Shown one piece after another: positions 7,598 through 46,501 of a stretch of 64,000 bases of DNA. A program made the translations under genes and the position numbers. Origin of the DNA: Labyrinthula sp. Ha (lineage: Eukaryota > Sar > Bigyra > Labyrinthulida > Labyrinthulaceae); contig JAALGZ010000028.1 of assembly GCA_015227615.1 (NCBI GenBank), forward strand, positions 434,001-498,000, in the 5' to 3' direction. The notes under the pieces are model-generated. The model was not told the origin of the DNA. It ran no database searches and worked only from the letters and a program-made list of their open reading frames with translations. The number at the start of each line of letters is the position of its first letter. Within the stretch, counting starts at the first letter, position 1.

Positions 7598-7802
7598 TCT
7601 CTCTCCCAGTTTTGGGTTACTGTTCCTATGCCTGAAAACTGTGGAGAGCTTACTTGTACTATAGCATTTGATATAAACCTAAGGTAACCCTGTAATAGTT
7701 ATCGTTTGACATATCGTATCACTTAACCGTTAACACACAATCTAACAAAAAAGGACTTTTCAAATCTCTAAATCCAAAGTCATCGCGACGCGAGATAAAG
7801 AC
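7598..7802 (+). repeat. E1 5' LTR
   Basis: 205 bp, starting TCTCTCTCCCAG and ending GATAAAGAC. It is not bounded by the usual TG...CA. The E2 LTRs start with the closely similar TCTCTTTCCCAG. Confidence 0.9.
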
Positions 7803-7819
7803 ATAATTCGAATTACGTC
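7800..7819. promoter_or_regulatory. palindrome across the E1 5' LTR/internal junction
   Basis: GACATAATTCGAATTACGTC is a 20-bp palindrome with one mismatched pair, lying where the minus-strand primer site should be. No TGG-initial tRNA-complementary primer site is visible. The same 20 bases occur in E2 (32113-32132, other strand). Confidence 0.75.
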
Positions 7820-7827
7820 AGAAGATA

Positions 7828-9180
7828 ATGGATCAGAGTGATTCGGAGAATATGCAGAGTAAAAACAAGGAAGTGGAATCTACCATGCCACCGGAAACGG
7901 AACACTCTGATGCAGCCGCTGGGGACGAAGGTTCTTCCACTCAATCGAATAACCCAGACACCTCCACTCCTACTACTGAATTTACTTCACCATCTCAGAC
8001 TCCAAAACGAGCGGATACACGCAGCAGGTTCACCAGCGTTCTTCCATTCTCTGCTTTGGACGAGCTGAAAAGGATCCGTAGGGAAAATAGGCGTCTTAAA
8101 AATCAAAATACCGCTTTAGAGGATTATGAATCTTGTCTCAGAGAAAAAGAAATCACAAACCAGCAGCAGCTAGAGCTAGATAAGGAGAAACTGGCAAAAA
8201 AGGAAGCTGAGCTCGACATCAGAGAAAAAGGCTTGGAATTTCTTCTTTCAAAGCAGCAAGCACCTCAAGATCACAACCTGAAGCAGCTTGAGAATCTTCG
8301 GAGCTGGCACGATAATCTGGTGGCTAAAGAAATGGAACTCAGCACGCTAAAAGATAACCTGAGAGAAGATATCGACCAGATAGAGGAGAGAAAGAGGCGT
8401 AAAGAGGAAAGCGAGCTACCTGATATTTCTACTGCTGCAGATGAAGAATTGCGTTCGTCGCGTGATAAGCAGGGACAAGATGAACCGCGCGATGTAGTAA
8501 GTATAGGGGGAAATGCAGGTAAAAATTCACATCGTGCCACGTCACTATACGATAAATGGTCTGAAACCGGTAGCACATTTTTGGAAAAGTATAAATACAA
8601 AGGGCTACCAGGCAATCCTGGATACCAAACACTTCCACAAGCACCGGTTACACATGGTTTACCTCTGGTTGAAGCTCAACTTCCGGAAAATTTGAGGCAA
8701 CTGACTGGAGACAAGATAGAGAATTTCCTACACCACTATCGCAACATAGTTAGAAATGTGCCGTCCCTCTCTATTCGATCTTTGTTAACGAAGGATTTAT
8801 CTGACTTGCTGGAACAAAGGGGAGTCAATATAGATTCTTCGGAGGCTATTATTAACTATCTCACGAGACACCTCATCAACTTTGAGAAAGCAAAACGTTT
8901 AAGATGCTTAGGTATACTGGAAAAGAATCTAAAATGTCCTTCAGCATATTTAATTCCTGCAGAACAAATCTACTTATTCTTCGACCAAGTTTCTAAAATA
9001 TTAAAACATCTAGACAAAAATGAGCTTAAAAAATATAAGAAGAAAATATTGTGGAGTGTTATAAACCAAATCCCTTCGGTTTTTGGAATTGAATATCAAC
9101 AATTTTTATTGGTATCTAAAGGCTTCTCTGTATCTAAGCTAAAGTCTATTCTACTATCAAGAAGATTTTTGCTGGAGAGA
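7828..9180 (+). pseudogene. E1 Gag region
   Basis: Ser/Thr-rich N-terminus, then a long charged coiled coil (about residues 80-200), then a capsid-like helical part (LTGDKIENFLHHYRNIVRN to about residue 350). The same capsid-like stretch is recognisable in E2 (LTGKGIENFLNEYRN) and E5 (IGDKIEAFL). No CCHC zinc knuckle is seen. Confidence 0.75.
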
Positions 9181-9369
9181 TGAAACTCAAAGTTGGAGGA
9201 GAGAAATGCAGTTGAGGTCAAGAAACAGAAACAGAGGACAAGAAATGTTGATGATGGAGATTCTATTAAGCAGTCAACCATATTTGGTTCTACTTCTCTA
9301 ATTTCAATTCGGGTCAAAAGAGTTGGCGACAAAGCAAGAAGCATATAACTTCTGTTGAAAAGCGTTGAA

Positions 9370-9690
9370 TCGGGTGATTTCATGCAAGTTAAGGGTCTTG
9401 CAAATACAGGAGCAGACCTTAACATTGCTTGACCTAGCTCGATGCAGGCATACAAGATCAGAGATGAAAAACCACAATTCATAAAAAATGTTACTATTAT
9501 GGACAAGAAGCCTATTCCAGTAAGGGCTGTGATAATAGCACACGTTGTTTTGGTCCAAGATGGATGGAAACTCGATTTAAAAGAACAACGCTTCTTCTGT
9601 GTGGATTCCAAGCTATGGGACGAAATGATCATAGGCGATCACACACTTAGATATTTCGGTTTGAAACTCAACATCAAAGACGCCCCCGAA
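9370..9690 (+). pseudogene. E1 aspartic protease region
   Basis: Retroviral-type protease signature in the segment VKGLANTGADLN, followed by the beta-rich stretch and the closing motif MIIGDHTLRYFGL. It lies between Gag and RT, the usual Ty3 place. The same signature is present in E5 near 63395. Confidence 0.7.
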
Positions 9691-10579
9691 AGCTGGTCGC
9701 ATGGACAAATAGGAACCTGGCGGGGAATTAGGTGTAGTTCCTGTGCCTCAAGATTATAAAGTCAATCATTATACTTCAACGCAGGACGAGCTCACATATT
9801 TCTCTGCTATATTTCACGATGAAACTGAAGTTTTGGATCAAACATCTTTCAAACACTCTCTCCCAAATTATTCGTTTGTATTTATTTCCTTACGAGCAGC
9901 AAACCAATACGCTATCTTTTCTTCCTTCTATAAAAATAATTTTCGGTTGCCGGATTTTTTACTATTTACAAACAACCTTGTTTTTACAGATAATACTCAG
10001 ACCTTTTTTCAGAACGATTCTTTTATATATTTCTTATTTATTAATACTTCTCACAGAAACTTACCTCTTATTCACCAAAGCAGAACCGACGTTGTTGAGG
10101 AGGCGGTTGACGTCGAATCCTTACTCATTAATACACTACGGAATCTATTTTAAATAGGAGAGCACAATATATCGATAGAATCTAATTCTCTGGATGAAAA
10201 GGAGCTTGAATTAAAACAGATGCTGATTGAGAATGACCTAAGAAGAGAGGAACCTATTCCTATTTCAAAAATCAAAGATGATTACACAGACCACATTCAA
10301 CATCTTTCCCCAGACGAGCCTATTCCACCAATACTTATTTCCAACATGGTGGAAAACATGCCTGAGGAGTTTAATGAGATAGAAAGAGGTGAAGGGAATA
10401 TTGAAAAAGAGGAAGAAATCAAGAGTTCAAAGAGCATGATGGCCAGCAAGTTAGAAGATTCTAATTTAGACCAAAATCAAAATAAAGATATGACAGATCT
10501 CATGATTCTAAATATTAACAGCCGGGGTGTTAAGCAATCGAACGCTCAAATGAGCCTCCTTCTCGAATAGAAATTTCTT

Positions 10580-12000
10580 TGAAACAATGTTACATAATCC
10601 TGAGATTGGACAGATACCACCTTACAGTTGACAAAGAAAACTTTCTAGATTTAAAGTTCAAGGCGTTAGAGGCGGTAGGAATAGTTGAGAGATCAACTAA
10701 CCCCACTTGGGGACATCCTGTCTTCGTAGTTGAAAAGAAATTGGCAAACCCGTCAAACTGGGTAGAACTAACCACCGAGGAAAGGGTAAAGTGGAAACGG
10801 GAAAACATCTTAAACCGTTATCACATGGTTTTGGTCATGATCCGGTTAAATAATATCACAGTTCCCATCTCACTCAATTTGTCTAACCTTGAAAGGCAGT
10901 TTTTTTTCTATTACAAACAGTTCATTTTACTTAACTCTCAACATCCTTGGTGACTTTGACTTTTTGCCAACAGCCGAAAAGGATCGGGATATATTTACTT
11001 TGGTTACAAGGCGCTCCGCTTGGAGAATGAAGGGCGCCCCTGTCGGGTGGTTCAACACTCCAGCTCTATTTTTTGAGCGCGTAATCAGTGAAATTATCAA
11101 CGCGGATGGTGTCGACGACTTATTTGGAGCCCAATCAAATGGCGTCATCGCGTGGTTAGACGACCTTCTGGTCTATTCGCAGTCTTTTGAACAACTTCTG
11201 ATCATATTTGAGAAACTTTTAAAGCAAGCTGCAAAGAAGCGGGTCCGGTTCAACCTCAGAAAGTGTGGAATATGCATCCCAACCACAGTTTGATGTGGAG
11301 GGAGATACGACAGGTCAGGTGGAAATTCGATCCCGCCTTCTACGATAAGATCCTAAATATGAAGAGACCAGAATACCGCCATTAAATGGTCCAACTGATA
11401 TATCTGGCAAACTGGATCTCATCTAATATTCCTAAGCTCGGCGAGCTTATGAAGACTTTTGAACATTATCCCAACCTCAAAGACAAGAAACTTTCAGAGA
11501 TAGAAAATTGAAAGAGCCGGTGATCTGGACAGATGAGTTGCTTGAAGCTTACAAGAAATTATTAGAAGAAATTGTCTCAACCAGCAAACGTTTTCTTTCT
11601 ACCTACAATCATGAAGAGCCACTTTTGCTCTTAACCGACAGTTTGAAGGACACTTGGTCAATCGCTGTATTCCAGGGCTCTCCTGGCAACGTTACAAATG
11701 ACGTCCGCACATTTTGACCCCGACCCTTGATATTCCTAAGCGGTGGATTTGTACCTAGTGAAGTAAGATAACACATAAGCTCCAAGGAACTTTATCATCT
11801 CATCTACTCGTTTGAAAGAATTGACTTCCTTCTTAGGACGCATATTGTGGGATCTATGTATACACCGATCACAAGGCGCTCCTTACTGTTGTTAGGGTCA
11901 AGGAGAACAAGAAGCGCATTTATTGGGATCTGCTATACCGCTGGATTATTCGCCTCAAATCAGTGGATCTGGTAATATTCCACATAAGCTCAAGAAATAA
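10580..12000 (+). pseudogene. E1 reverse transcriptase and RNase H region
   Basis: RT fingers and palm are recognisable by GIVERSTNPTWGHPVFVVEK, WRMKGAPVGWFNTPALF and the catalytic-loop segment IAWLDDLLVYS. An RNase H-like segment follows (about 11508-11990), with the tether motif near DLVIFHISSRNNFVSDLLTR. Typical Ty3 order. Confidence 0.85.
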
Positions 12001-12399
12001 CTTTGTCTCTGATCTGCTAACCCGCTGGGCTAAAGAAGAAGAAGAGAGCAGTAACAGAATAACACGTTGCTCTATGGATTTTAAACTGGAGGATGAACAA
12101 ATTCCTACAGAAGAAGAGTTAGCATTTGAAGGTCAAACCTCTGCAGTTCGAGGTGGAGAAGAAGAACTACATAAAGATATATTTTCAGTGGACGTCTCTG
12201 AAGTGGAGTTCTCAGAACATCCTCAATACTTGGAATATGAAAGGACATTGGTTAACAGAATGCGAAGGACGGTTGATCCGGAAACTAATACTGATTTCCA
12301 ATCAAGGCCTATTTCTATCACTACAAATTATTCGGAGATTAAGGAGTTCTTATTCTCTGAACATATCCCCTAGTTATCCCCATTTTATTCAAAAAAAAA

Positions 12400-13930
12400 A
12401 CAACAAATTCGATGTTTCTGCAGGCACAATCAGTAAGAAGCAGAAGGAATTACCTGCAGATTTTATAGTGGAATGCACTGAAATGGAAGGCTTATTTTAT
12501 TTTCAGGAGAAACTTGTTATTCCGCGAAGTCTATTTGGCCACTTATTAGTAAAGAACCACATGGACAAGTATCATCCATCCTTAGCAGCGGAGAAGAAAT
12601 CGATCTCTAATGTTTATTTTCACGGGATCCGCAAGAGTGAATAGCTGAAGCTGTTGAAGCCGTTCCGACAAAGATGATTACACTCCCAGAGGGAGCCTCA
12701 TATTCTGCGGCGCCCATATAATCTCACACATCTCGCTAAGAAATCGTGTGAGATCCTCAGGACTTACTATCTGTATGTAAACAAAACTGGTTACATATTA
12801 GTACTTGTGGATTCATGTACCAGGAAGCTGAAGTTATTTTACTCAGAAGCGCCAACAGCTAAGGCCATGGCCAACGCCTTAATGCAGTGGCGTTCCGACC
12901 TCGGTTTCAACAATTATTTCTTGGTGATAACTGATAATGGTTCACATTTTTCAAATCACTTGCTCAAGGCACTAACAAAAAATATAGGGTTCGAGCAAGG
13001 GTTCTCGGTGGCATACTCACCATGGAAAAATGGCTCGGGTGAAGTGGTAAATTCAGCTATCCTTCGCTGCATGAAGAGCCTAACCTCCAAATACAGACTC
13101 CATGAGTCTGAGTGGCCAAAATTACTTACTATTTCATATGTTATAAACAACAGACCATCTAATGAAAGGCTAAATAAATCTCCCAACAAGTTGTTTCTAT
13201 ATTACAAGCTTACTACACCTCTTCTCCAACAATCTCCTAAACATTTTTTCGATTTCATTAGCCAACAACGTTAAGGAGCCACTGGATGTTGCTACGCTTA
13301 TTGAGGAAGCTGATGAAATTATGAGTATTATCGAGTCCGTACAGGATGAAGTTTATACGGAGGTCAAATTTAAGCGGGCTATGGAGAACAGTCGTCAAAA
13401 TAAGAAGAGGAAAGTTATATTCTAATCTTTGCAGGGTGGCTATGTACTCGTTTCTGAGTATGGAACCCTTAATGCAAAAAAAATAGACGTGCCTTAACTG
13501 GATCGGTCCTTATCAGGTCACAAACATTATTAGTAAAGATGTCTATGAAGTAGAAAGCATCGTAGGGAAGAGAAGAATTATTTGCGCTTCACAATTATGG
13601 TTTTACTCAAATGAAAGGCCCTTTGGCAACAAAAACCTTAAGGCTCTATTCGTTCACAATTTTCAAAGCCTAGAAATCATAAGGATAAAGAAGATTCAAT
13701 TATTCTCATCCCCTTGAGTTGAATACAGTGTGTGCGTTTCTTGGCTTGGTTTTCAGTTGAAAGCGATACATTGGAACCGCTGGATACAATTTACCGTGAT
13801 GTTCCCCTACTAGTACGGGATTTTGTTAATAAAATCAAAAACAAATATAGGAAAGATGCACTATTATCCCACTTACAAAAGTTGGACGCTACTTCTCAGA
13901 GGGGGAATACAAATATTAGAAGAGCAACCT
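12400..13930 (+). pseudogene. E1 integrase and chromodomain region
   Basis: Integrase core with VITDNGSHFSN and YSPWKNGSGE, preceded by the zinc-binding-type segment around HMDKYHPSLAAEKK. A chromodomain-like end (13690-13900) is shown by WFSVESDTLEPLDTIYRD followed by an F-V-N-K helix, as in chromoviruses, where it steers integration to marked chromatin. Confidence 0.8.
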
Positions 13931-13979
13931 TTTGAACTTTAAAGCAACTTCGAATTTTGACTTAAATGAAAAAAGAAAT

Positions 13980-14180
13980 ACACTGGGTTGGCTTGATGAG
14001 GAAAAGAACATTTTATGTTGCCTTCTAAAAAAACTTTGGCTGTGGAAATTAAGACAAATACTACATGGAGTTTCATTTACCATACCGAACTAAGCAACAA
14101 GTCAATACCCAGATTCAGAGTATTTTAAACCTCCAGGCTATTAGTATGTTCTACAATTTGAAGTTTGATTTAATTGAAGC
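13980..14180 (+). pseudogene. E1 SANT/Myb-like region
   Basis: LGWLDEEKNILCCLLKKLW followed by a segment with TKQQVNTQIQSILNLQAI. The spacing of tryptophan, acidic and leucine residues and the Q-rich third helix fit a SANT/Myb fold. Close counterparts are at the same place in E2 and E3. Confidence 0.55.
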
Positions 14181-14499
14181 TCGCGAATATTTGTGCACTG
14201 AGCTTGGAATCAATAAGTTTCACAAGAACTTACCAGGAAGATCAAATATGTTCTCAGAGAAATATGTCTTTTTAAATCAGTTCAAGAAAATTTTATACAA
14301 AGGGAATTATGAAGATCTTTCCATTCCTTATTTTTGAAGGATTAACGATTTACGAAATATACAGCTTTTACTTTCTGAAGTTAATTTAGAAAGTGCTCAG
14401 TGTTTTATAAAGAAAGATAGTCTTAATATTTTTATTCTAGAGAAGAAGTTATCAGATCATACTTCACAGTTGGAAGAAATTTATATTCACAATAAAGGA

Positions 14500-15330
14500 T
14501 CTTTGGACAATTTTTATTCAATTATTAGCATCAATGATGATTTTTTGGACTGCTCTTAGCAGCTACTGGTGCACAGTTAGAGGTTCTGAGGAAAGTTCAG
14601 GTTTATTTACTACTTCTAGCTCCCAATATTCTATTTCTGAGGACCAGTTTTCGGTCTCGGTGGAGTTTCACGATGAAGATGTAGTTATCACATTATTGGA
14701 CCTCGATAAAGTCTCCAAGGTTATTTTAAACTATCAGGGTGGAAACTTATTCCAGATCGCTGGCACGACGTTAAAGATTTATTTCAGACCTGCTCATTCT
14801 AGAGTTATTTTGGAAAATGTATTCAGCATGACCTATTCACATCCTACAAGAAGCTCGGATGTATACACCCTAGTCGTAATGGATCCGCCATGGAAAGTTG
14901 GCGTTACAAATCCCACTAGGGGTTGCTCTAGATTACCCAACTATCTCTCTAGAAAAATTCTCAAAAATTACTTTACCTTTAGTCAATTATCTGTATGGCT
15001 CACTTCTCTTTATTTGGGTAACCAATTATTCATACTTTACAGTACTGAAGTGGGCTAACTCTCTCAAGTATTTTCTGGTCGATAGCATTACATGGATTAA
15101 ACGAAATAATTCTGGCAAGTTGCACAAAACTCCTGGCTATATCCTGCAACATAGCAAGGAGATTTGGCTCGTATTCATACGAAAAGAAAACAAGAAATTA
15201 ACTTACTCTGACACCTTCTTCGAGATATTCGCTAAAGGACATTCTAACTTAATTTGGGCGCAGCCTGAGAAGCAATCGGTGAAAACTGAATTATTCTACT
15301 CACTGTTGAACCGAAGTTTTCCTTAGCATA
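14500..15330 (+). pseudogene. E1 MT-A70-type adenine methyltransferase region
   Basis: Contains the MT-A70 catalytic motif in LVVMDPPWKVGVTNPTRG, then the family landmarks YPTIS, LLFIWVTNYSY, ITWIKRNNSGKL and LQHSKEIWLV. In cellular MT-A70 proteins D-P-P-W is the N6-adenine methyl transfer site and the later motifs shape the Rossmann core. It is the last module before the 3' LTR. Confidence 0.85.
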
Positions 15331-15456
15331 ACAAAATTAGGTTTTTTGCACGTACTAACAATGTGGGCTGCAACTGGACAACAACGGGATTAGACCTTAC
15401 ACCATCTTTTGACGTGAACTATTTCTAACCCTGTTGGATCCCTTATTTCGGGAGGA

Positions 15457-15661
15457 TCTCTCTCCCAGTTTTGGGTTACTGTTCCTATGTCCGGAAATTG
15501 TGGAGAGCTTACTTGTACTATGGTATTTGTTATAAATCTAAGGTAACCCTGTAATAGTTATCGTTTGGCATACCGTATCGCTTAACCGTTAACACACAAT
15601 CTAACAAAGAAGGACTTTCCAAATCTCTAAATCCAAAGTCACCGCGACACAAGATAAATAC
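15457..15661 (+). repeat. E1 3' LTR
   Basis: 205 bp, starting TCTCTCTCCCAG and ending GATAAATAC, directly followed by the AGTAC target duplication. It differs from the 5' LTR mostly by transitions. Confidence 0.9.
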
Positions 15662-17610
15662 AGTACATAAACTAATTGCCCAAAATATTTTTTGGTGTAA
15701 AAGTAATCATTCAAAAAAACCAACTGGCTGTATCTAGGGTCCTTCATCGTGCTTACCGTTAACTATTGGATATTTAAATATGCCAATTTTTTTAACGTTA
15801 TTAACGGTAAAGTATCCTTAACGGATCGGAAATTAACGGTAAGTAAAAATTCTGATAGCCTTTATTGTTCCCAAAAATTTTTAACAATTTAATATTCAGT
15901 CCAAAATAATATCCTAATAATATATTATATCTATATTATTGCTATAAAGAAACTAAACTGAAGCAAAAGCTGACTCAAAAGTAGATGCAACATGGAATCA
16001 ACATCATTTGCAAATTTTTACATACGAAAATTTTCTTATAATTACTACCCTTACGTTTGAATTTATCTCTATCTGAGCTAAAAATAACTCCTAAAAAAAT
16101 TTAAATATTTAAAATACCTTTTCTAAGTAGTTTTAAAGAATTAATTCTTCTCACTAAGAGAAAATGCAACTGAGAAAATAGAGGTAATACCTTGGCCATG
16201 TCAAGAATTTTGCATAGTCTTCAAATAGAAATGCTTGTATCTTGACCTGAACTTCTTTTAAAAAAAACTATGATATATCACTGGCACAATATTTAAATTT
16301 ACTATACATTCAAGGAATGTAATTTTGTTTTTCCATAAGTTGATTACGAGTTATGTGCATTTTAATACCCGAACATCAAGATCAAATCTATCATAGGAAT
16401 ATTTTCCTCAGTAAAAGCCATTTTCTCAGTCAATACTTCTTCTTTTTAAACCAAATAAGATTTTAAGATGCTTTAAATATTTGTTCCAAAATATTATAGC
16501 TTTTGTATTTTCTTTTACTGTGAAATACTAGGGTTAAACTACTTATTTCTATGTTTCTAGAATATTGGTCAATTTCAAGTCATATTTTGGCTTCTCTTAT
16601 ATCTACCTTAATTTTTATGTGGAACACTATTATAAGTTATAATACTTGTTTTAAAATTTTTTTTCTACCCACTGGCTTTTAAAAAATTTGTGTTTGAAGA
16701 CTAAAAGATACTTTTCTATTCTGTTCTTTTCACGTCATCCGGTATTTTAGAACAATCTCTAAATAATTGCAAAGATCTTTTCTCAATGAATTTTTGAATA
16801 TATTAAAAACAAAATACATTTTTAGAAAGGTCTTTTAAACATTTTTTAGCCATATAAGATAATATAGGATGTGAAAAGAATAAATACATGTAGAATCCAA
16901 AATATCACCACAATATCGCACATCCATTTTATATCGATCAGAAAACCATAAAAAAAGGTTAACCGATCTCTGTACACTGACAACGTTCGCTCTTATATTC
17001 AATTTAAGCCTAGTAGTGAATAATATTGTTTTATGGTCTTTGTTATTACAGGCTGTTGGAAACTTTATCAAAGATTTTTTCAAAAATAAGTATAATGGCC
17101 ATAAAATCAACAACACCTCTTCAACTTTTCTACAAAGCTCAAAACGTATTGCAAACTAGAACAATTACTTACCCACATAATAATATAGAGGATTAAAACT
17201 ATATAAAGCATAAGAAAACGATGATTATTGAAAACATAAAATATAGTATTTGTTAGATTTTGTCACGAAATCTTCCTCAAATACAATATTATCACCCACA
17301 ATGTGTTTCAAATTAAGAAAACTTTCCAACCATGTATTTTATCAATGTATTTCATAAGAATGGATACTTTAAACCCTAAAAAAGCCAATTTTATGGGGGG
17401 GTTCACTAAGTTTACAGATCTCTAAAGAATATACATTCAAACGTAACATCACAAAGAATAACTCTATAAATAATCTGATTCTTCTCAGATCCTAAGAATT
17501 CATTATATCTGACTTCTCAAACTGTTTTTCGTGATTTTTTTATCTAGTTAACTGTAACTGAGCTAACCTTTACGCAGAAAAGTAAAATGTTGAAAATCTG
17601 CACATCTGAA
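15662..17610. other. array spacer, unit 1, left part
   Basis: AT-rich sequence matching 38823-39199 plus 46939-48541 of unit 2. The only open frame of note (16835-17116, minus) is not kept in the other copy, so I see no supportable gene. A cluster of TTAACGGTAA motifs lies at its left end. Confidence 0.75.
15753..15842. promoter_or_regulatory. cluster of TTAACGGTAA / TTACCGTTAA motifs
   Basis: TTACCGTTAA at 15753 (inverted), TTAACGGTAA at 15801 and 15833, plus a partial TTAACGG near 15819. The cluster is kept in unit 2 at 38941-39032. AACGG is the core of Myb binding sites, so this may be a regulatory cluster or part of an old repeat; nothing here shows which. Confidence 0.35.
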
Positions 17611-24421: not shown

Positions 24422-24559
24422 TCCCCCCCAAATAATGGATTCAACCGGGTTAGTGGTAATTGACATGAAAAGAAGGATTGGGATCTAATCCAGTTGATGT
24501 CCAGCGACAGCACACTCTGTTAGTGCGAGCAAAAACTCGATCTTATTTTGATGAGGGAA

Positions 24560-25390
24560 ACTGCTGTCGATTAGGTAGTAAAAGAGTTCAGTTTTCACAG
24601 AAGAACTTTAAGGAGATGAATGAAAAGTGCCCTGTAGTTGATGTGAAACTTTTTCGAACAAAGTGTCGAAATAAGTAACCTTGTCATTTTCTTTTCGGAT
24701 AAAAATTCAACAAATTTCTTGGCTGTGTTGAAAAATTTAGCCCAAACTCTTATGTAATTTTCAAGAAAGGTTCTTTTGACCGAATTATTTCTTTGTAAAG
24801 GTAGTAATCTAGAGAACTAATCCATTGCAGAACTGTGTTATAAGAATAGTTGGTAGCCCAGATGAATGAAAGGGATCCACGAGGAAAATATTGTAGTGGA
24901 AATTTAATCTTCAAAAACTGATGCACAGATAAAATAGGACATACCAAGGAAACTCCTCTAGTAGAATTTGAAGTACAAACCCTCCACGCGGGATCCTTAA
25001 TCACCAGGACAAAGATGCCCATGTTTCTAGTAGGATGCAAAAATTTTAGAGTAAAGACGTTTTCTAATATAATTCTAGAGAATTCGGTTTAAAATAAACT
25101 TGTAAAGTAGCTTTAGAGACCAATGATATATTACCGTAACGATGAATTAAAATAGACCTGTTTGAGTCAGGCAAATCCAATAAAGTAAGAGAAACACGCT
25201 CGTCATGTAGTTCCCGAGTAATTGAAAACCCGTCCTCGGAAATAGAAAATTGAGGACCAGAATGAAGTTGTAAATATGAATCATCTTCAGCATTGACCAC
25301 TGTACACCAATAATTACTGAGGACCGTCCAAAAGTCTCCATTACGAGAAACTAAAGAAAAAAAGTGATCTAATAAACCCCTTTTGTCCAA
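24560..25390 (-). pseudogene. E2 MT-A70-type methyltransferase region
   Basis: Catalytic motif in LVIKDPAWRVCTSNSTRG (DPAW variant), then SLSFIWATNYSYNTVLQW, the family's W-x-T-N strand. The upstream segment (FSISEDGFSI...HDERVSLTLLDL) matches the E1 region just before its DPPW, showing that the whole module, not only the motif, is shared. Confidence 0.8.
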
Positions 25391-25689
25391 ATAAATTTAT
25401 TCGAACAAGAATTAATGATTGGAAAGTTTTTGATTTTAGGAAGTTCAGAGTAACTTTAAACTTAGCCATGAAAGATCTGTATTCTTTGTCACCGACTTCA
25501 GAAACCACCAGCTTGATATGTTTTAAGTCACTCAATCTTCGTAAATAAGGAACATGAGTGTTAGATAAATCTTCACCACTCAACCTGTTCTTGAAACACA
25601 CGAAGGGATGTATCACGTTTAGAAAACATATTAGCTTTGCCAGATAAATTCTTATGAAACTTTGTAACACATATTTCTTTTTTAAGATA

Positions 25690-26300
25690 TTCATGAGCAT
25701 CGTATAGATTGAAATAAAGTCCATGAAACATACTAATTGATTGTAAATTAAGAATGTTTTGAATTTGCGCAGCAATTTACTGTTTACTTCCAAAGGGTAA
25801 ATAAGACTGGCTTGGAAACTTTCCGTAATTTCCACAACTGAAGCGTTTAACCAAACAAACTAAGACTTCTTTCTCCTCTTCATACCAACCTAACGAGTTT
25901 TAATTCTCATCTAAAGAAAAAAATGTTTTTGACTTATAATTAACTGTACTTGTTAGTCTTAATACGGTCTCTTCCTCCGATGAATTGTTGTCTAATCTGC
26001 AAAGATAAACAAGAATAGCATCTTTCCGATAATTGTTTCTCATCTTATTGACAAAAGTGTGAAGTAAAAGAGGAAAATCTCTGTAAGTGTCGTCTAATGG
26101 TTCCCAACTGTTGCTTTGGGAGTCAAATCCAAACCATGAAATAATATTCTGGTATTCAGGTGTATTGTTCCCGCGTAGCTGGATCTTCTCTATTTTATCA
26201 ATTTCGAGACTTTGAAAATTATGTGTAAAAAAATGCTTTAAGGTTTTCATTTCCAGTTGGCTTTTCATGTGAATAAAACCATAGTCGTGAGGTATAGACC
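25690..26300 (-). pseudogene. E2 chromodomain and SANT/Myb-like region
   Basis: Chromodomain-like segment at 26010-26230 (IISWFGFDSQSNSWEPLDD then FPLLLHTFVNKM). Downstream on the minus strand a tryptophan/acidic segment (LGWYEEEKEVLVCLVKRF) and a Q-rich helix (IAAQIQNILNLQSISMF) correspond to the SANT/Myb-like module of E1. Confidence 0.65.
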
Positions 26301-26539
26301 ACATGACGTTTTACAGGTAAATTTCCAACTTCATATACATCTTTAGAAATAATATCAGTGACTTGGTACGGCCCCAATCAACTTAAACGTGTTTTTTTCG
26401 TTGACGTTTAGGGTACCGTGTTCAGAAACTAGGACATAATCTCCTTGGGAAAACTAAATGATTATCTTATGCTTCTTATTTAAACGAGAGTCATCAATGT
26501 CTCTTTTTAGCTTGACAGAGTTATAGACTTCTTTTTGTA

Positions 26540-27450
26540 CCTGATATATAGCGACCCGAATTTCTTCAGCATCTGAAATTAGTTCTTTGACTTTGATAGG
26601 TTTTTTAATTTGTTTGAAATATTAATTGCAAAATGTTTGAGAGAACTTTGGATTAGAGGAGTAGTTAATTTGTAAAATAGGAAAAGTTCGTTTGGAGTTT
26701 TATTCGTTCTTCTTTCCATTGTTTGATTATTAATAATATAAGAAATAATATTTAGCAACTGAGGCCACTCTGATTCATGTAATTGACATTGTGACACTAA
26801 ACCTTGTAAACAACGTAAAATAGAAGAATTTATAGTTTCTATGGAATTATCGATCCAAGGAGAATACGCTACGGAGAAAGACTGTTTGAAGCCTATCTTC
26901 TTTGAAAGCGTTTCAACTGATCGATTTGCAAAATGAGAGCCATGATCTGTAATAAAAAGAAAATAGTCATTGAAACCAAGATCAGTTCGCCATTAAAGTA
27001 ATGTATTAGCCCGAGTATCAGTTGTAGGAGAAACAGTGTTAAAGAGCATAATCTTGCGGGTACAAGAGTTTAGCAGAGCTAATATGTAGCCTTCTTATTA
27101 ATATATAGGCAATCTGCTCGCAAAATATACCTCGCTCTCTTAGCTAAATTAGTTAAGTTGTAAGGTCTCCTTAATATATGAGGTTCTCGTTGGCAATGAA
27201 GCTAACGTTACCGATATGACTGTAACAAATTAAATAGATCTCCTTTCCGAATTCCATGGAAATATATATTAGATAAAGATTTCTTCTCAAAGGAGAGCGA
27301 TGGATGACATTTGTCAATATAGTTCTTTACCAAAAATTGCGCCAAGTGTGTATGTAGGACTAGAAGCTTGCCCTGAAAATAATATAGATCTTCCACAAGA
27401 TCATATTTCGATAAAAATTCTTCGTTCAACTCATCCTGCTCTGATTTTTA
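26540..27450 (-). pseudogene. E2 integrase region
   Basis: Integrase C-terminal core (LHESEWPQLLNIISYIINN, NELFLFYKLTTP) and, upstream on the minus strand, the zinc-binding-type segment KNYIDKCHPSLSFEKKS. Both match E1. Confidence 0.7.
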
Positions 27451-27819
27451 AAATTTCTGAGTTGATTTCTACCTTGTCCTTCTTTGAATCAAAGGCAATA
27501 AATAAGATATATGTTCTGTGAATAAACAGTCTTTGATGTCTGAATAATTTGAATGAACAAAAACAGATTGGGAGCTTAATGGGTTTCGAGTTATATTTAC
27601 CCTAGCACAAAATTTTCTCCCTATTAATAATCTTTCATACTCTGGAGCATCATCCTGATTTGAGAAGTCAGCCTCAAAGCAACCCTTGTCGTCAAATAAA
27701 ACTGGGCCAGCATCCAAATAAGTCACTCTGATTGAATCCGTAGTTAATTGGAGTTCCCCCTTACCTTTGAAATCTTTTTCGTCTAGTTGAACTTCCCACG
27801 AGGATCTAGAGATTTTAGA

Positions 27820-29250
27820 TATGTTTTATGTATCATCTGTAGCCCATATAGTTACAATATCTGAAACAAAGTTATCTCGGGAGGTAATGTGGAAGATTAC
27901 GAGATCAAAAGACTGTAATATTATTATGCAGCGATACAACCGAACCCAATAAATGTGTTTATTGTTCTCTTTGACTCGAACAACTGTGATTAGCGCCTTG
28001 TGATTGGTGTAGACAAAAATACCACCAATGTGTGTTCGGAGTAAAAAAACAATACGCTGAAATGAATAGATCAAGGCGTTTAATTCTTTTGAACTGGTGT
28101 ACCACCGAGTTTCACTTCGTGTAAATCCTCCACTAAGGAAAATAAAAGGATGCGGTTTCAGCGTCCTTACATCGTTTGTAACATTTTCTGGAGAATCCTA
28201 GAAAACTGCGATGGACCATGTGTCTTTAGAGCTGTTAGTAAATAAAAGTAAATGAGAAATATGATTATAAGTTGGAAAAAAAACTCTTGCTTGCATCAAC
28301 GATTCCCTCCAGCTGATTCTTCTAGGCAATTTCTAACTCGGGGGTCTAATGAATAACCTCTTTAAGTTTTTCAATTTCAGTTAGCTTCTTCCCCTTTAAG
28401 TTTGAAAAATCCTGAAATGGTCTACGAAGTTCAGCCAACTTCGGGATATTTGGAGAGATCCAGTTAGCTAAATAAACTAAATGAGCCATTTGATGACAAC
28501 AGACTGGCTTTTTCATGTTCAACGTCTTTTGATAAAAAGCTAGGTAAAAGTCCCATCTGTCCTTATTAATCTGCCTACCACACCAGACGATTGTATGGGA
28601 ACAAATGCCACATTTACGAAGGTTGAAACGAACTCTCTTTCGAGCGGCTTGCTTGAGTTACTTCTCGAAAATAACCAACGACTCTTCAAAAGACTGAGAA
28701 TAATCTAAATGATCATCAAGCCAGGCAATAACTCCATTTGAAGGAGCATTGAAAAGATCCTACTCATCATCTGTATTTATAATTTCCGTAATAACTCTCT
28801 CAAGAAATAAAGCTGGAGTGTAACCACCCCACCGGAGCGCCCTTCATTCTCCAATTGGATCGTCGAGAGACCAAAGTATAAATGCCCTGATCATTTTCCG
28901 CTGTTGGAAGAAAATCAAATCCACTTAAAATATTAATAGTAATATAAGAACTGCTGTTGGTAATTGATAAAAACTGTCTTTCTAAATTTGGTAAATTTAA
29001 AGAAGTAGGGACCGTTATTTTGTTTAGGCGGATCATGTTAGCCACTATCCGATAACGATTCAAGATATTATCCTGTTTCCACTTGACCTTGAAACCGTTT
29101 GAATATTGCGACCAACGAGGAGGGTTTTCAATTTTCTTTTCTACAGCAAAATCTGGATGTCCCCAGCTTGGGTTAGTGTATCTTTCCACCATTTCCGCTG
29201 CTTCAAGAACCTTGAATTTGAGATCTAAAAATCCTCTTCGTCAACCGTAA
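27820..29250 (-). pseudogene. E2 reverse transcriptase and RNase H region
   Basis: RT begins VERYTNPSWGHPDFAVEKK and continues with NWRMKGAPVGWLHSSF. The RNase H part includes GGIFVYTNHKALITVVRVKEN and the tether FHITSRDNFVSDIVT. Same order and close sequence to E1. Confidence 0.8.
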
Positions 29251-30249
29251 GATGGTAATTATCTGAACGAAGAATGTGGTACCCATATACAAAAGATACT
29301 TCGATTGATGAAATCAGGGACATCTGGGCGCTGGACTGTTTGATCCCCAACTTGACATGTGCCCAGAAACAACCTGAATCATGGTCTCCTCCTGCTCATT
29401 TTAATTGTAGACTCAGAAACCTTTGTGGAGATCGTACTTCTTAAGCTCCCTAGTTCTTCCTTTTTTGAAATATTACCCTCCTCGATGTCCACTTCATTAA
29501 ACTCCTCAGACGTGTTGTCAACCATGTTGAAGATAATTATAGGCGGGATCGGCTTATTCTGGCCAAGGTTGTCAACATGTTCCGTATAGTTATCCTTGAT
29601 AACAGATAAAGGAACTGCATCGACCTTGTTAATAATAAAATTGTCAGAAATATTTTCGAATCTAATACCACTTTCTGAAGCAGGGGCTGAAGATACCGTA
29701 TTTTTATGCTGCCTCTCGGAAAGAAGGTTATGTAACGTTGAAATAAGAAAAGACTCAACGTCGACACCCTCCTCCACCATATTCCTTCTGCTTTAGTGAA
29801 TCAAAGGGTGGCTTCTTCCTTGGGGATTTAAAATAAAAAATATTTGAAAGCATATTTTAAGAAGGGTGTATTGTCTTCCAAACCATTTGAAGGGTTACTT
29901 AGAAATAAAAGAGAATCAGCTAAATGAAAGTTTTCTTGTAGAGATAATAGAAAATTCCTTTTTGCGATCTTGATCCCATTCTAATAAGAATGAAAATGTA
30001 CTTCAAAATAGAGCGGTCTACCTGCTGGTCAGGCTCTAAAATGTCTTCTTTATTTTGAATGATTAGAGAAAAATGTTGCACCTGCTTTGTCGGGAGCCCT
30101 CGATGTTTTCAATAACTTCCACTCGGCTCCAGAGATACATCACCCTCCTTGCCTGCAACCTATTTTTCAATTTTTCTGCCTTCGGCGTATCCTTCAATTT
30201 CAGCTTGACTCCAAAGTAGCGAAGGGTTCTGTCACCAATAATAATTTCA

Positions 30250-38822: not shown

Positions 38823-39199
38823 ATTTTTTTTGTTTGTTTTTGTTATTTTAGTACATAAACTAATTGCCCAAAACATTTTTTGTGTGTAAAAGTAATCATT
38901 AAAAAAAACCAACTGGCTGTATCTAGGTCCTTTATGGTGCTTACCGTTAACTATTGGAAATTTAAATATCCCATTTTTGCTTAACGTTATTAACGGTAAG
39001 GTATCCTTAACGGATCGGAAATTAACGGTAAGTAAAAATTCTGATAGCTTTTAGTGTTCCCAAAAATTTTTAGCAATTTAATATTCTGTCCCAAATCATA
39101 TCCTCATAATATATTATATCTGTATTATTTCTATGAAGAAAATAAACTGAAGCAAAAGCTGACTCAAAAGTAGATGCAACATAGAATCAACATCATTTG
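38823..39199. other. array spacer, unit 2, left part
   Basis: Matches 7575-7597 plus 15662-15990 of unit 1, and includes the TTAACGGTAA cluster at 38941-39032. No gene seen. Confidence 0.75.
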
Positions 39200-39636
39200 T
39201 GTTGAAATAAGTTAGTTTTGGTTTGTAAATATACGAGAAAGAGCTGATGTTCTGACCTCTAGTGATTGAAATATAAAGATAGATGTAAGTTGAGTGGGTG
39301 AGGTATATCCGAACCTTTGTTGAGAGCCAAGCGGAGCTCTTATGGGAAAATATAAGCTTGTTTAGACTTAAGAAAAATGGTCGTTATTAGAAATATAAAA
39401 TCGGTGGTAATGTCATATTGGAAGTTAACGGAAGAGAAAAATGTGATGACGTGGTTTGGTGAAATACAGTTTTAGTGATGATCGGGCACGAACTGTAGTT
39501 TGCTGAATATAGTTTTTAAGAAGTTTTTTAAGCCTTAAGTAATCGATAGAAGAAGTTTACAATATTTTTAAGAAACCAAGAAGAAAAGGAAGAAATAATA
39601 TTTAGAAGTGTAAATTGAGAACTAGACGTACTCAAT
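39200..39636 (+). repeat. E3 5' LTR
   Basis: 437 bp, TGTTGAAATA to ACTCAAT. Ends in CAAT, as the E4 LTR does, rather than the usual CA. Contains GATGACGTGG, shared with the solo LTR at 4304. Confidence 0.9.
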
Positions 39637-39666
39637 ATTGGATCCAATATTCGTATAAATAGTACG
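39627..39666. promoter_or_regulatory. nested palindrome across the E3 5' LTR/internal junction
   Basis: AATATTGGATCCAATATT (39634-39651) is a perfect 18-bp palindrome, flanked by the inverted pair CGTACT (39627-39632) and AGTACG (39661-39666). It occupies the primer-site position; no tRNA-type TGG primer site is seen. Confidence 0.75.
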
Positions 39667-39679
39667 AATTATAATAGTT

Positions 39680-41040
39680 ATGGAAAAAGTGAATAAAAAC
39701 AGAAGTGAGCCTGCGGTTCTAAGATCGGAGGGTGGTAGGAAATCAGGAGGAAGGGTGGTTGCAGAAATCAGTTCCAGGAACATTATCACCCGAGATACAG
39801 AAACTCCTCAGGAGTTGAATCAGGTTGCGGTTGAGGAAAATAGCAGTCAAGGAGACTTGCGAGACACTAGTGAAGTGTACAGGAGCGTGTCTGATCCAGG
39901 AGAAAACATTACAACCCCGGATCACGTAGTAGTAACACGTGAAAGTTGGGAGCAGCTTCTGCAAAATTATGAGACTCTACAACTTCAAATGAGCACCTTA
40001 CTCCAACAAGTAAAGGCAAACATATCAACGGGAAGCAATAAGAGAGTTAAAAAGGATCTGTTCAGGATCAAAGATAAGAGGAAAAATATGTCGGATGTCG
40101 AGGACTCGAATTCTGAGAGTAGTAATCTTTCGACATCTTCATCGAGTTCGGCTGAGTCAGATGACGATGCTGGAAATAGTAGAGGTTTGAGAGAAAGTGA
40201 GAGAAAGAGGGCGAGAGAGGAGAAATATAAGGGGAAGCTAATATTGCGAACCCTGGAGCCTAGTAAGGTGGCATCATTTCTAGAGGAATTTCAGGTGTAT
40301 GAGACCAATGTGGTCAGAGGGAGGTTGAAGCTGCCTAATGCTGATATTTCTTTAAGTTTGAGCAATCAGGTGCAGGTGATGTTGCAAGATGAGGGAGTAA
40401 GTGTGATGAGAAGGAGGTCTGTAATGAAGTACCTCAATAACATCAATCGGCTACAAAATAAAGGAAAAGAAAAAATACTAATGAGAAAGGTAGAGAACTT
40501 GATGTGGTCTAGTGAGGGCACACCTATGAAGTCCATGACTCATTTTTTAAAACAAGTTACATATATGGTAAGAGGAATTAAGTGGGAGACCAAGTCGATG
40601 AAGAGGGAGTTTTGCTTGAAGGTGATCAAGAAATTGCCTTTAGAGTTTGGATCAGGGAACGCAAAAGAAACCCAGTCGATAAAGAAGTGGAAGACAGTGG
40701 GAAAATTAAGGAGAGATTTGAATGAGGTGGCCATGATAATATCGGAATGGGATCTTCAGAGTCCAGCTTTAAAACTTTTGACTAATGATCCCCTAAAGAA
40801 TAAAAATAAAGTAAGTGTGAAGTCGGATCCAGCTTCGAAGCAGCGTCCAAAAAACCCTCGAGGGGAGTCAAACCCCTCAGAAGGGGTAAGAAAGACGACT
40901 CTAGAGGATGGATCACTAAAACACTTCCTACCAAAGAGCTGGTCTAAGGAAAAAAGGAAGCAGTATGGCATGGATCATAACCTGTGCCTCTTCTGTTACA
41001 CCAGTAATCATCGATTTGATGATTGTAAGTTGGTTAAACA
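39680..41040 (+). pseudogene. E3 Gag region
   Basis: Charged N-terminus with a Ser-rich stretch, a helical capsid-like body, and a CCHC-type zinc knuckle CLFCYTSNHRFDDC near 40985. An acidic linker leads straight into RT without a protease. Confidence 0.75.
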
Positions 41041-41499
41041 GAGGGATGCTAAGAAGGAGAAGACGGTAAACGAAATTGAAAAAGAGGAGAGGAGTAATGA
41101 AAAGTTGGAGGCGGAAGAAAGCAGTTCGGAGGATGAGGAGTCGGTATTTGTAGGAGCGGTCGAAGTATTGGATGTTGAAGAAAATTATGGAGATGAACCG
41201 GAGGACTTCATGGTGGGGTCTCTAGATCCAGTTGACTTAGGAGAAATATTAATTGAGGATGAATTTGAAGTCGGAGGAGATGTAGGGAAGCCACATGTAA
41301 CCAATAAGAAAGTGCAGGCGTACCTAAGAAATAAAGTTAAAGAAAAAGTTTTAGTAGGAGTGGAAGAAGGAACCATAACTTCTATTCAAGCACAAGAGCT
41401 GGAGTCCATTTTATTAGGTCATCTTGAAGCTTTTGGATCAAAAATTGCTAAATGCGACTTCAATAATCTTACTCCTATGAAAATTGAGCTACGTGAAGG

Positions 41500-42880
41500 A
41501 GTCGCAGAATATGTAAGTAAACCTTACCCAATGTCCAAAGTCAGCATGGAGGCCCTAAAGAAAAAATTAAGAGAATTAGAAGACATGGGGATGATTAGGA
41601 GAGAGCCAAACCCTTTCTTCTCTTCACCTGTAATTATGGTCCCGAAGCCAGGAAAAAGGGATGAATATAGGATGGTAGTTGATCTTCGTAGGTGTAACAG
41701 ATCTGTTAGACCTACCGGAGCAGGATTGCCGGACTTGGAAACTCAGTTGGCTTGGTTTAAGGGTACCTAGAGATACTTCGGGGGTTTTGATAGATTAAGT
41801 GAATTCGATTATTTGAGGGTGGAAGATGGAGCTCAGAAATATTTGGGGACGGTGACGCCGTGGGGTTGCTCTACTATGTTGATGACCCCCAGGGATATAT
41901 CAATACTCCCCAGATATACCACGAAAGACTGATCAACGAAGTCCTAGGTGGTGTAAATGATAATAGTTTGTTCGGTAATGGAGTTCTGCAGTGGATTGAT
42001 AATTCACTGATTTATGCTTCATCCTGGAAAGAATATAAGGATATTCTTTCCCAGTTTTTAACCCAGTACATAAAGGTGAATTTTCGTTTGAATCTGAATA
42101 AGTGTGATTTGATCAAAAGTAGGGTGGGATGGTGTGGGAGAATCTTGGAAAACGGGAGATGGAGATATGATGAGAAATATTTTTTGAAGTTGGAAGATAT
42201 GGGGGAGGTGAGGAAGATGGGTCAGTTGGAGGATTTGGTCTATGTAAGCACATGGCTAGCTTCCAGCGTACCAGATTTAGCAAGGAAACGTCACTACCTT
42301 AGTAAGAGAATGAATGAGCTTGAACGGGATCTAAAAATAAAATATAAAAAGAAGCTAAATAAGCATCAACGAAGAGCTTCATCGGTGGAAGAGTGATATA
42401 GCGAAGAGGACCAGAACGAGGTTCGCAAATTCTTGAAGTCTATATCTTCCAGTGCAGCCAGCAGTTTAAAGTTGTACCAGCTTGATAGGAGGGTAGCCGT
42501 ATTCACGGATGCAAGTTTTCAGTTCTGGTCAGGGGTGCTTGGACTGTGGAATGATGACGGGTGGTTGCCTATTTGTTTCTGAAGTGGAGAGTTTGTGGGA
42601 AGTAGTATTCATTGGAGCATGACCGTTAAGGATATCTATCCCATTATTAAGTTAATGAAAAGATATAGATTCATCTTGTACGATCACCAAACACCCATAG
42701 AACTCTATACAGATCACAAAAACTTGATATACTTAATGACACCAAAAAAAACATGAAAGCTGCTGCGTTTGGGCGGGTTCAGAGATGGATACTCACCATC
42801 CAAGAATTCGTCACGGTGTTTCATCATCTTCCAGGAGAGACTAATGTTCTGGCGGATCTGTTGACGAGGTGGGGGAATGA
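41500..42880 (+). pseudogene. E3 reverse transcriptase and RNase H region
   Basis: RT fingers with LEDMGMIRREPNPFFSSPVI, YRMVVDLRRCNR and the catalytic-loop segment VLQWIDNSLIYASS; RNase H from about 42470 with FTDASFQFWSG, YTDHKNL and HHLPGETNVLADLLTRW. Clear Ty3-type order. Confidence 0.88.
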
Positions 42881-43239
42881 GGAGTCAGAGGACACGTTAA
42901 ACTTGAAGGCTATGCTGGTAGATAACAATGGGGATATGGGTTGGAGAATTAGATGGAAAGGGATAACATTCTTTGCAAATAGTGGAGACGTTGATGTTGA
43001 AAAGATGGAGATTGCTAATATGATTGATGGACCCGAAAGTGAAGAGGTATTGGAAGTAGAAGTAAATAAGGGCTATAGTTGGAGGTTTGATCCAGAAGTA
43101 GTAAAGTTTGTGGAAAATAGAGTTGCTGTTCATTTCCCTAAAAGAAAGCAGGAAATGAAGATTTTTACAATTCCAGAGATAGTGAAAGTCCAAGAAGCAT
43201 GTGAATTAAACTTGAAGGATTTGGATGCATCTCAAAATG

Positions 43240-44610: not shown

Positions 44611-44799
44611 CCGTAGATTTTGAGAATGCTCATAAATTGATCAGAGAATGGGAAAGAAGTAAAGGTAGTAAAGAAGTAAATATGATTGCAGAAAGTGTAA
44701 ATAATGTACCTAAAAATATCTGGCTGAAAGAAAGGATAAAAATAATTAAATATCCAAGTAGAATAACATCGATGTCGGAAGGGGTGTCAGAAGGTTTAA

Positions 44800-44980
44800 G
44801 TAGATCTAAAGGTTGGTCGTTAGCAGAAAAGATAGTATTTGAAAAGTTGAGTTTGAAATTTGGAATAGGAAATTGGAAAGAAATATGCTCACTAAGTTGC
44901 CTTCCTGGGAAAAGTAAGTCTCAAATGGTAACTCAATTGCAGGCATCGTTAGGTAGTCAATCGATCGGGGTATATAGAAT
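44800..44980 (+). pseudogene. E3 SANT/Myb-like region
   Basis: KGWSLAEKIVFEKLSLKFG, GNWKEICSLSCLPGK and SQMVTQLQASLGSQ follow the three-helix SANT/Myb pattern with the spaced tryptophans. A DNA- or histone-tail-binding role is inferred from the fold only. Confidence 0.65.
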
Positions 44981-46480: not shown

Positions 46481-46501
46481 TCGAGCTTATAAAGAAAGCA
46501 G

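What the first reader, a model, noticed from the sequence alone, without database searches (positions are those of the whole stretch)
14500..15330. LTR retrotransposons encoding an MT-A70 (N6-adenine) methyltransferase
E1 (14500-15330), E2 (24560-25390), E3 (45960-46480) and E4 (60030-60570) all carry, as the last module before the 3' LTR, a domain with DPPW or DPAW followed by the W-V-T-N, W-I/V-K-x-x-x-S-G-K, H-x-K-E-I and (E3, E4) K-P-D / L-E-L/I-F-G-R landmarks of the MT-A70 family. The four copies are very different from one another, so the domain was inherited through a long retroelement history and not captured once at this locus. Cytosine methyltransferases in retrotransposons and Dam-like methyltransferases in DIRS elements are known; I do not know of a described MT-A70 lineage in Ty3-like elements. 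It could have marked element DNA (6mA) or RNA (m6A).
Basis: partly seen in the sequence, partly recalled or inferred. Interest (0 to 1): 0.95.

Follow-up and report, generated by a model that had tools for sequence, protein, structure and literature searches.

The report
Retrotransposons carrying a 6mA DNA methyltransferase
A group of LTR retrotransposons in this protist genome carries, inside its own polyprotein, relatives of two parts of the cell's DNA adenine-methylation machine (the catalytic MTA1 and the DNA-binding p1), which suggests that these mobile elements may write an epigenetic mark of their own.

Summary
Confirmed and extended. Four Ty3-like elements in the window end in an MT-A70 domain. 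Over the assembly, 150 of 354 candidate places were scored; all pass the PF05063 cut-off and 53 lie in open frames of 1000 codons or more (recount). In 15 of 15 long-ORF elements the order is RT-RNase H, integrase, a Myb-like domain, methyltransferase. The Myb-like domain matches p1 of the Tetrahymena 6mA complex MTA1c (E 4.6e-18). The methyltransferase profile scores best on MTA1 (236 bits; METTL3 160, METTL14 90, METTL4-type 70), and 30 of 30 copies hold an MTA1-type PxRG insert. RT and methyltransferase trees share 11 of 12 splits; dN/dS is under 0.5 in 21 of 22 close pairs. The host has its own MTA1 and two p1-like genes. Best explanation: elements captured a p1+MTA1 pair and use it to put 6mA on their cDNA or new copies. 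Identity is well supported; catalysis and purpose are inferred. The tree leaves the place within MT-A70 open, even joining some elements weakly with METTL3. Nine literature searches found no description.

The parts
7598..15662 (+). E1, decayed Ty3-like element with LTRs 7598-7803 and 15457-15662; coding similarity 9848-15422 (L014 family)
   Evidence: tblastn; LTR pair 206 bp, 91.7%; GTAC on both sides
14786..15425 (+). E1 MT-A70 domain, frameshifted, pieces 14786-14935, 14880-15323 and 15327-15425
   Evidence: PF05063 40.3 bits for 14880-15323
24533..29633 (-). E2, decayed Ty3-like element (L014 family); no LTR pair found
24753..25088 (-). E2 MT-A70 piece (a further remnant reaches about 24500)
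   Evidence: element profile 58.3 bits; no Pfam match at E<=1
39199..46941 (+). E3, Ty3-like element with LTRs 39199-39639 and 46501-46941; coding 39680-46489 split over several frames
44445..44594 (+). E3 chromodomain (weak, below the Pfam cut-off)
   Evidence: PF00385 17.4 bits, residues 119-168 of window:44091-45221
44805..45101 (+). E3 p1-like Myb domain
   Evidence: Tetrahymena p1 query, 58.8 bits, (G000:C75:478805-479101)
45332..45634 (+). E3 aspartic-protease-like domain, between p1 and methyltransferase
   Evidence: element profile 148 bits; DSG visible
45974..46471 (+). E3 MT-A70 (MTA1-like) methyltransferase domain
   Evidence: PF05063 121 bits; 118.9 bits
53658..61134 (+). E4, decayed Ty3-like element with LTRs 53658-54200 and 60591-61134; coding similarity 54309-60566 (L011 family)
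60015..60566 (+). E4 MT-A70 domain, three stop-free pieces

Best explanation
Ty3/Gypsy-type, mostly chromodomain-bearing LTR retrotransposons of this protist have long carried a captured pair of 6mA DNA-methyltransferase subunits, a p1-like Myb DNA-binding domain followed by an MTA1/AMT1-like MT-A70 domain, at the C-terminus of the polyprotein, behind integrase. Shown here: presence, domain order, p1 and MTA1 similarity, co-inheritance with RT and integrase, purifying selection, copies with nearly identical LTRs. Inferred: the two domains are packaged with RT and integrase, bind the element's double-stranded cDNA or its fresh insertion and methylate adenines (ApT, as MTA1c does). Because 6mA marks transcriptionally permissive starts in AMT1-bearing eukaryotes, the new copy is labelled as active or as self before the host silences or degrades it. 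MTA9- and p2-like partners, if needed, would come from the host.
For: 150 of 354 PF05063 candidates scored, all over cut-off, 53 in frames of 1000+ codons (one of the 150 is the host MTA1). Order RT-RH, INT, p1, MT in 15 of 15 long-ORF elements. p1 match E 4.6e-18 for L010 and 1e-7 for L043. 111 of 150 p1-like places have a same-strand MT-A70 place 454-986 bp downstream; 1 has one upstream, 0 on the other strand. MTA1 236 bits against METTL3 160. PxRG insert 30 of 30. DP[PA]W in 26 of 30. RT/MT trees 11 of 12 splits, shuffles at most 4. dN/dS below 0.5 in 21 of 22 pairs with dS 0.03-0.9. [quoted passage not shown] p1 helps to form the DNA channel of MTA1c (PMC9174199 passages).
Against: No methylation data. 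In Tetrahymena all four subunits contribute to DNA binding and MTA1 binds SAM stably only with p2 (PMC9174199 passages); I saw no element MTA9 or p2 and did not search for host ones. 4 of 30 copies lack DP[PA]W (L018, L028, L040, L041). The free tree does not put the elements with MTA1; some join METTL3 weakly (82/87). AMT2/5 and AMT6/7 references were missing. Foldseek ranks MTA1 first but METTL3 close behind. The selection test has no usable RT pairs and two integrase pairs for comparison.
Confidence: 0.6

Rival explanations
1. The p1-methyltransferase module is mainly a targeting device: it tethers the integration complex to the host's 6mA-marked promoters or to host MTA1c, so that new copies land in permissive chromatin; methylation is secondary.
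For: The module lies directly behind integrase and the chromodomain; p1 is a DNA-binding subunit (PMC9174199 passages); 6mA lies downstream of active starts in AMT1 species (PMC12695648 abstract).
Against: DP[PA]W is kept in 26 of 30 copies, which a tether alone does not need. Insertion sites were not examined.
Confidence: 0.17
2. The enzyme methylates RNA (m6A) of the element, to help translation, packaging or escape from sensing, like METTL3.
For: The MT-A70 fold is shared; METTL3 is the second-best profile match and close in Foldseek; two element groups join METTL3 weakly in the tree (82/87).
Against: p1 partner, 76 bits better fit to MTA1, PxRG insert present in 30 of 30 copies and in MTA1 but a gap in METTL3.
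Confidence: 0.12
3. The element subunits act on the host's 6mA system: they compete with host MTA1 and p1 for MTA9/p2 and so weaken or redirect it.
For: Host MTA1 and two p1-like genes are present; the elements carry only two of the four subunits; 4 of 30 copies lack DP[PA]W.
Against: Most copies keep the catalytic motif and low dN/dS.
Confidence: 0.08
4. Passenger or artefact: chance motifs, assembly chimera or a decayed passenger without function.
For: Three of the four window copies are decayed and E3 is frameshifted.
Against: 150 scored matches on many contigs, in one frame with RT and integrase, inside LTR pairs in 14 of 15 long-ORF loci, congruent trees, low dN/dS.
Confidence: 0.03

Closest known systems
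MTA1c / AMT1 DNA 6mA methyltransferase complex (MTA1, MTA9, p1, p2)
   Same: MT-A70 catalytic domain with DPPW and PxRG, and a p1-like Myb domain
   Different: Fused in one retroelement polyprotein; no MTA9 or p2 seen in the element; long divergent branches; some copies have a protease domain between the two
KnitGypsy-Dnmt3 of Klebsormidium nitens and Symbiodinium LINE/DIRS-Dnmt elements (PMC5890265, passages)
   Same: A DNA methyltransferase captured into a retrotransposon polyprotein and kept under purifying selection; KnitGypsy is also an LTR Gypsy element
   Different: Those are cytosine (5mC) enzymes; here an adenine enzyme of the MT-A70 family with its DNA-binding subunit
Dam-like adenine methyltransferases of DIRS elements (mentioned in PMC5890265, passages)
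   Same: N6-adenine methyltransferase in a retrotransposon
   Different: Bacterial-type Dam enzyme, tyrosine-recombinase elements; no p1
METTL3-METTL14 m6A writer
   Same: MT-A70 fold and motifs
   Different: RNA enzyme; lacks the PxRG insert and p1; lower profile score
Ty3/Gypsy chromoviruses
   Same: RT-RNase H-integrase-chromodomain order and LTRs
   Different: p1+methyltransferase extension; in some the protease lies behind integrase; a palindrome lies where a primer-binding site is expected

Membership tests
MT-A70 family (PF05063) | Match over the curated cut-off along the whole domain | tested here: met
   150 of 150 scored places over 23.9 bits; E3 118.9 bits; E1 and two E4 pieces over it, the E2 piece not
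MT-A70 family (PF05063) | Catalytic DPPW-type motif | tested here: met
   DP[PA]W in 26 of 30 element copies; L018, L028, L040, L041 differ
AMT1/MTA1 subfamily | Closest to MTA1 among solved MT-A70 proteins | tested here: met
   236 bits against METTL3 160, METTL14 90, METTL4-type 70, MTA9 40
AMT1/MTA1 subfamily | PxRG insert behind DPPW (seen here, not a published criterion) | tested here: met
   30 of 30 element copies by alignment; by motif search 20 of 23 element rows, 17 of 17 MTA1 rows, 0 of 9 METTL3-like or other rows
AMT1/MTA1 subfamily | Falls in the AMT1 clade of a tree | tested here: inconclusive
   Cellular MTA1 is one clade (99/97) without the elements; element branches are long and unresolved; AMT2/5, AMT6/7, METTL14 and METTL4 not included
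AMT1/MTA1 subfamily | DNA 6mA activity | not testable with these tools
   No methylation data or assay
p1 (AMTP1) | Myb-like domain with p1-specific sequence beyond it | tested here: met
   L010 117 residues E 4.6e-18; L043 76 residues E 1e-7, next a TADA2 Myb at 3.5e-4. E3's own p1 piece gave no Myb match in Pfam but 58.8 bits with the p1 query
MTA1c complex | MTA9 and p2 subunits | not tested
   Not searched for in host or elements
METTL3 | METTL3-like fit of the domain | tested here: not met
   76 bits below MTA1, PxRG where METTL3 has a gap; but weak tree grouping of some elements with METTL3
Ty3/Gypsy LTR retrotransposon | RT-RNase H before integrase in one polyprotein | tested here: met
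   15 of 15 long-ORF elements; Ty3 RT 4ol8 E 1.2e-12, best match 8r0s E 4.3e-21
Ty3/Gypsy LTR retrotransposon | Flanking LTRs and short target duplication | tested here: met
   LTR pairs in 14 of 15 long-ORF loci and in E1, E3, E4. 4-bp duplications readable at about half of the 17; many offsets were tried and chance was not computed
Chromovirus | Chromodomain behind integrase | tested here: met
   Chromo matched in 6 of 7 polyproteins scanned, two of the six below the cut-off (L009, L010), none in L012
Ty3/Gypsy LTR retrotransposon | tRNA primer-binding site next to the 5' LTR | tested here: inconclusive
   A perfect 12-18 bp palindrome there in 14 of 17; no comparison with host tRNAs was made, the window has none

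The most novel reading that the evidence does not exclude
A whole group of LTR retrotransposons is self-licensing: it carries its own writer, with DNA-binding subunit, of the permissive 6mA mark, methylates its cDNA or new insertion and so hands on an epigenetic 'active gene' label through transposition. It would be a captured, fused version of the ancestral eukaryotic AMT1-p1 system kept through at least five diverged element lineages.
Probability: 0.45. Interest if true: 0.95.

Novelty: new variant of a known kind. Interest (0 to 1): 0.88.

Why it matters
Retrotransposons with cytosine methyltransferases and with bacterial Dam-like enzymes are known. An element that holds the eukaryotic 6mA writer together with its DNA-binding partner would, as far as my nine searches show, be the first case of mobile elements using 6mA, a mark tied to active rather than silent chromatin. 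It makes an open question testable: is 6mA instructive? 6mA calls over young and old copies, or an assay of the two-domain protein alone, would show whether a minimal writer works without MTA9 and p2.

Tried and rejected
METTL3-type RNA enzyme: disfavoured, not excluded. Recent single capture at this locus: rejected by congruent RT, INT and MT trees. Placing the element enzymes within one cellular clade by tree: not achieved, long branches. AF2 of the E3 chromo-p1 piece with three rows: mean pLDDT 36.6, discarded. Composition: CpG o/e 0.55-0.83 in element stretches and 0.52-0.74 in six others; ApT o/e 0.84-1.01 against 0.71-0.81; confounded by coding content, not used. ZZ-domain search for an AMT2/5-type host gene: 4 matches; comparing positions by eye I saw none beside a listed MT-A70 place. 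Frameshifted or unannotated elements elsewhere would be missed. Organism: no tool named it; host MTA1 groups with Mucochytrium and Hondaea (labyrinthulomycetes) at 96/64. SSU rRNA search did not complete. Literature; no listed title or abstract start describes MT-A70 in retrotransposons, and passages read in PMC12695648, PMC11258239, PMC5890265, PMC11441545 and PMC13297926 do not either. bioRxiv and most subscription journals are not held.

Full report
WHAT WAS CHECKED. The window is G000:C75:434001-498000 of an unnamed 50.8-Mb eukaryotic assembly. PF05063 over that assembly gave 354 candidates; 150 were scored and all 150 exceed the cut-off (23.9 bits; best 132.3). The 150 include one host gene (below) and may include others. 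53 of 150 lie in an open frame of at least 1000 codons, the longest 2660 (recount). The same search in 14 control genomes gave 0. E3 is among the 150 (window 45974-46471); E1, E2 and E4 are not and were tested apart. A profile made from element copies finds all four places and nothing else above 9 bits in 1018 stop-free pieces of the window. Pfam itself recognises E3, E1 and two of three E4 pieces, but not E2.

ELEMENT ANATOMY. tblastn with element proteins outlines E1 (+, 9848-15422, L014 family), E2 (-, 29633-24533, L014 family), E3 (+, 39680-46489, about 90% identical to L009) and E4 (+, 54309-60566, up to 48-57% identical to L011 over its longer stretches). LTR-like direct repeats enclose E1, E3, E4 and 14 of the 15 long-ORF loci; none was found for E2, nor in the stretch held for L014. 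In the loci they are 93.3-100% identical (L010 93.3, L011 94.1, the others 96.5 or more; L016 and L017 give only short matches of 124-192 bp). Four-base duplications next to TG...CA/TA-type ends can be read at L009, L013, L015, L041, L042, L043 and E3 (and L040, as 4 or 6 bases), and at E1 without the TG; at L010, L011, L012, L016, L017, L018, L039 and E4 I call none with confidence. 289 offset pairs were tried per element, so single 4-base matches are expected by chance.

DOMAIN ORDER. Pfam on seven long-frame polyproteins gives RVT_1 (7 of 7 over cut-off), RT_RNaseH, rve (7 of 7 matched, several below cut-off), Chromo (6 of 7, two of them below cut-off) and MT-A70 at the C-terminus (7 of 7). 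Element-built profiles show RT-RH, INT, p1-like, MT in this order in 15 of 15 long-ORF elements. The protease lies before RT in L011, L013, L018, L041 and L043; between p1 and MT in L009, L010, L012, L015 and L039, weakly also in L016 and L040; none was found in the Pol frame of L014, L017 and L042. E3 has it between p1 and MT.

THE p1 DOMAIN. The stretch between chromodomain and methyltransferase of L010 matches the p1 chain of Tetrahymena MTA1c (7f4l_E, E 4.6e-18, 117 residues); p2 comes next at E 0.038. The shorter version in L043 matches p1 at E 1e-7, ahead of a TADA2 Myb domain at 3.5e-4. Tetrahymena p1 against the assembly gave 317 candidates, 150 scored: two stand out (104.9 and 103.8 bits, C1:1284467 and C100:135982, probable host p1 genes), 148 follow (71.5 to 28.4 bits). 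Of the 150, 111 have a same-strand MT-A70 place 454-986 bp downstream; 1 has one upstream, 0 on the other strand. The 39 unpaired include the two host genes; the MT list used (171 places) is incomplete. In a tree of 18 p1 rows the cellular p1 rows form one clade (98/96) outside the elements.

THE METHYLTRANSFERASE. A profile of eight element C-termini scores Tetrahymena MTA1 at 236 bits, METTL3 160, METTL14 90, a METTL4-type chain (7cv6_B, deposited as Methyltransferase-like protein 2; the METTL4 label is recalled) 70 and MTA9 40. In an alignment of 30 element copies with MTA1 and METTL3, PxRG shortly behind DPPW is in 30 of 30 copies and in both MTA1 rows and is a gap in METTL3; DP[PA]W is kept in 26 of 30. 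By motif search it was found in 20 of 23 element rows, 17 of 17 MTA1 rows and 0 of 9 METTL3-like or other rows. The AF2 model of window 45200-46489 (mean pLDDT 65.2, about 90 over much of the methyltransferase) matches MTA1 7yi8_B best (E 1.6e-20), with METTL3 close (9.6e-19), so the fold does not separate them.

HOST GENES. C91:220686-221273 is 55% identical to Tetrahymena MTA1 (248 bits; next best place 142) and is the likely host MTA1/AMT1 gene; its nearest named relatives are labyrinthulomycetes (65% identity over 62-63% of the query). A yeast Ime4-type query found nothing in the assembly above 118 bits, the best being element copies; a METTL3 gene split by introns could be missed.

EVOLUTION. 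RT-RH, INT and MT trees of the same 15 elements share 11 (RT/MT), 9 (INT/MT) and 8 (RT/INT) of 12 splits; 3000 label shuffles reach at most 4, 3 and 4 (trees, count). The methyltransferase thus travelled with the element core. In the wider tree cellular MTA1 is one clade (99/97) and the METTL3 rows another (100/100); the elements form several long branches outside both, and two groups of them (L012/L039 and L009/L010/L015/L016 with kin) join METTL3 weakly (82/87), a result against my reading. One clade of all element rows is not rejected (p-AU 0.143); seven rows were dropped before that test (RE_L013, RE_L040 and q_P0006, q_P0007, q_P0009, q_P0010, q_P0013). dN/dS of the methyltransferase: 30 pairs, 22 of them with dS 0.03-0.9, of which 21 are below 0.5 (median 0.20; one 0.61); 8 pairs lie beyond dS 1.3 and 7 of those are 0.55-0.67, probably saturated. 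p1: 21 pairs, median 0.135, 15 below 0.5; protease: 30 pairs, median 0.61, 14 below 0.5; integrase 2 pairs; RT none. Pairs are not independent.

ELEMENTS WITHOUT THE MODULE. Of 150 scored RNase H (PF17917) places (of 379 candidates), 75 have a listed MT-A70 place 2.5-3.2 kb downstream, 5 only a p1-like place, 70 neither within the distances asked. Of four of these 70 that I picked by hand, three carry the methyltransferase: L044, L046 and L047 (L047 lacks integrase and p1; its MT place was listed but lay too near). L045, of the lineage with the highest PF17917 scores, shows none in the 6.7 kb held. Both kinds coexist, and the count with module is a lower bound.

HOW IT MOST LIKELY WORKS. [quoted passage not shown]). 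MTA1 is the catalytic subunit and p1 helps to form the DNA channel; all four subunits contribute (PMC9174199: passages). In Mucor, loss of mta1 or p1 removes symmetric 6mA (PMC11258239: passages). Inference: the p1-methyltransferase C-terminus is packaged with RT and integrase, methylates double-stranded cDNA or the new copy and labels it as permissive or self. The DNMT-retrotransposon paper proposed cDNA methylation for DIRS-Dnmt3 elements (PMC5890265: passages); the same logic fits here with a mark of opposite sign. Weak points are the missing MTA9 and p2 and the absence of methylation data.

LIMITS. One assembly was searched at DNA level; the protein database may hold few transposon proteins. 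References for AMT2/5, AMT6/7, METTL14 and METTL4 were not in the trees. That this is undescribed rests on nine searches of an open-access library.

Noticed in passing
window about 39639 (E3) and 7803 (E1); 5' LTR ends of L009, L010, L012, L013, L015, L017, L018, L039-L043: A perfect 12-18 bp palindrome at the 5' LTR/internal junction, where a primer-binding site is expected, in 14 of 17 elements examined (not in L011, L016, E4); of random 36-mers in the same elements 0.25-1.4% have one as long. It may be a self-priming hairpin or a dimerisation site.
   Followed up: partly
L009, L010, L012, L015, L039; window 45332-45634: The aspartic protease lies behind integrase, between the p1-like domain and the methyltransferase, not between gag and RT.
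   Followed up: partly
L033 1336-2487 (+), L034 1216-1896 (-): Two host p1-like genes (104.9 and 103.8 bits to Tetrahymena p1) on different contigs.
   Followed up: partly
L047 5794-7401 (-): An open frame that joins RNase H to the methyltransferase without integrase or p1, apparently an internal deletion.
   Followed up: no
window 17848-21188 (+): A broken Copia-type element (Retrotran_gag_2, gag_pre-integrs, SH3_retrovirus, RVT_2); no MT-A70 profile match there.
   Followed up: no
window 5859-6917 (-), 32748-34691 (-), 52107-53165 (-): Three long frames with Roc/Ras-type GTPase domains at the same residues (one also COR-A), apparently copies of one host gene family between the elements.
   Followed up: no
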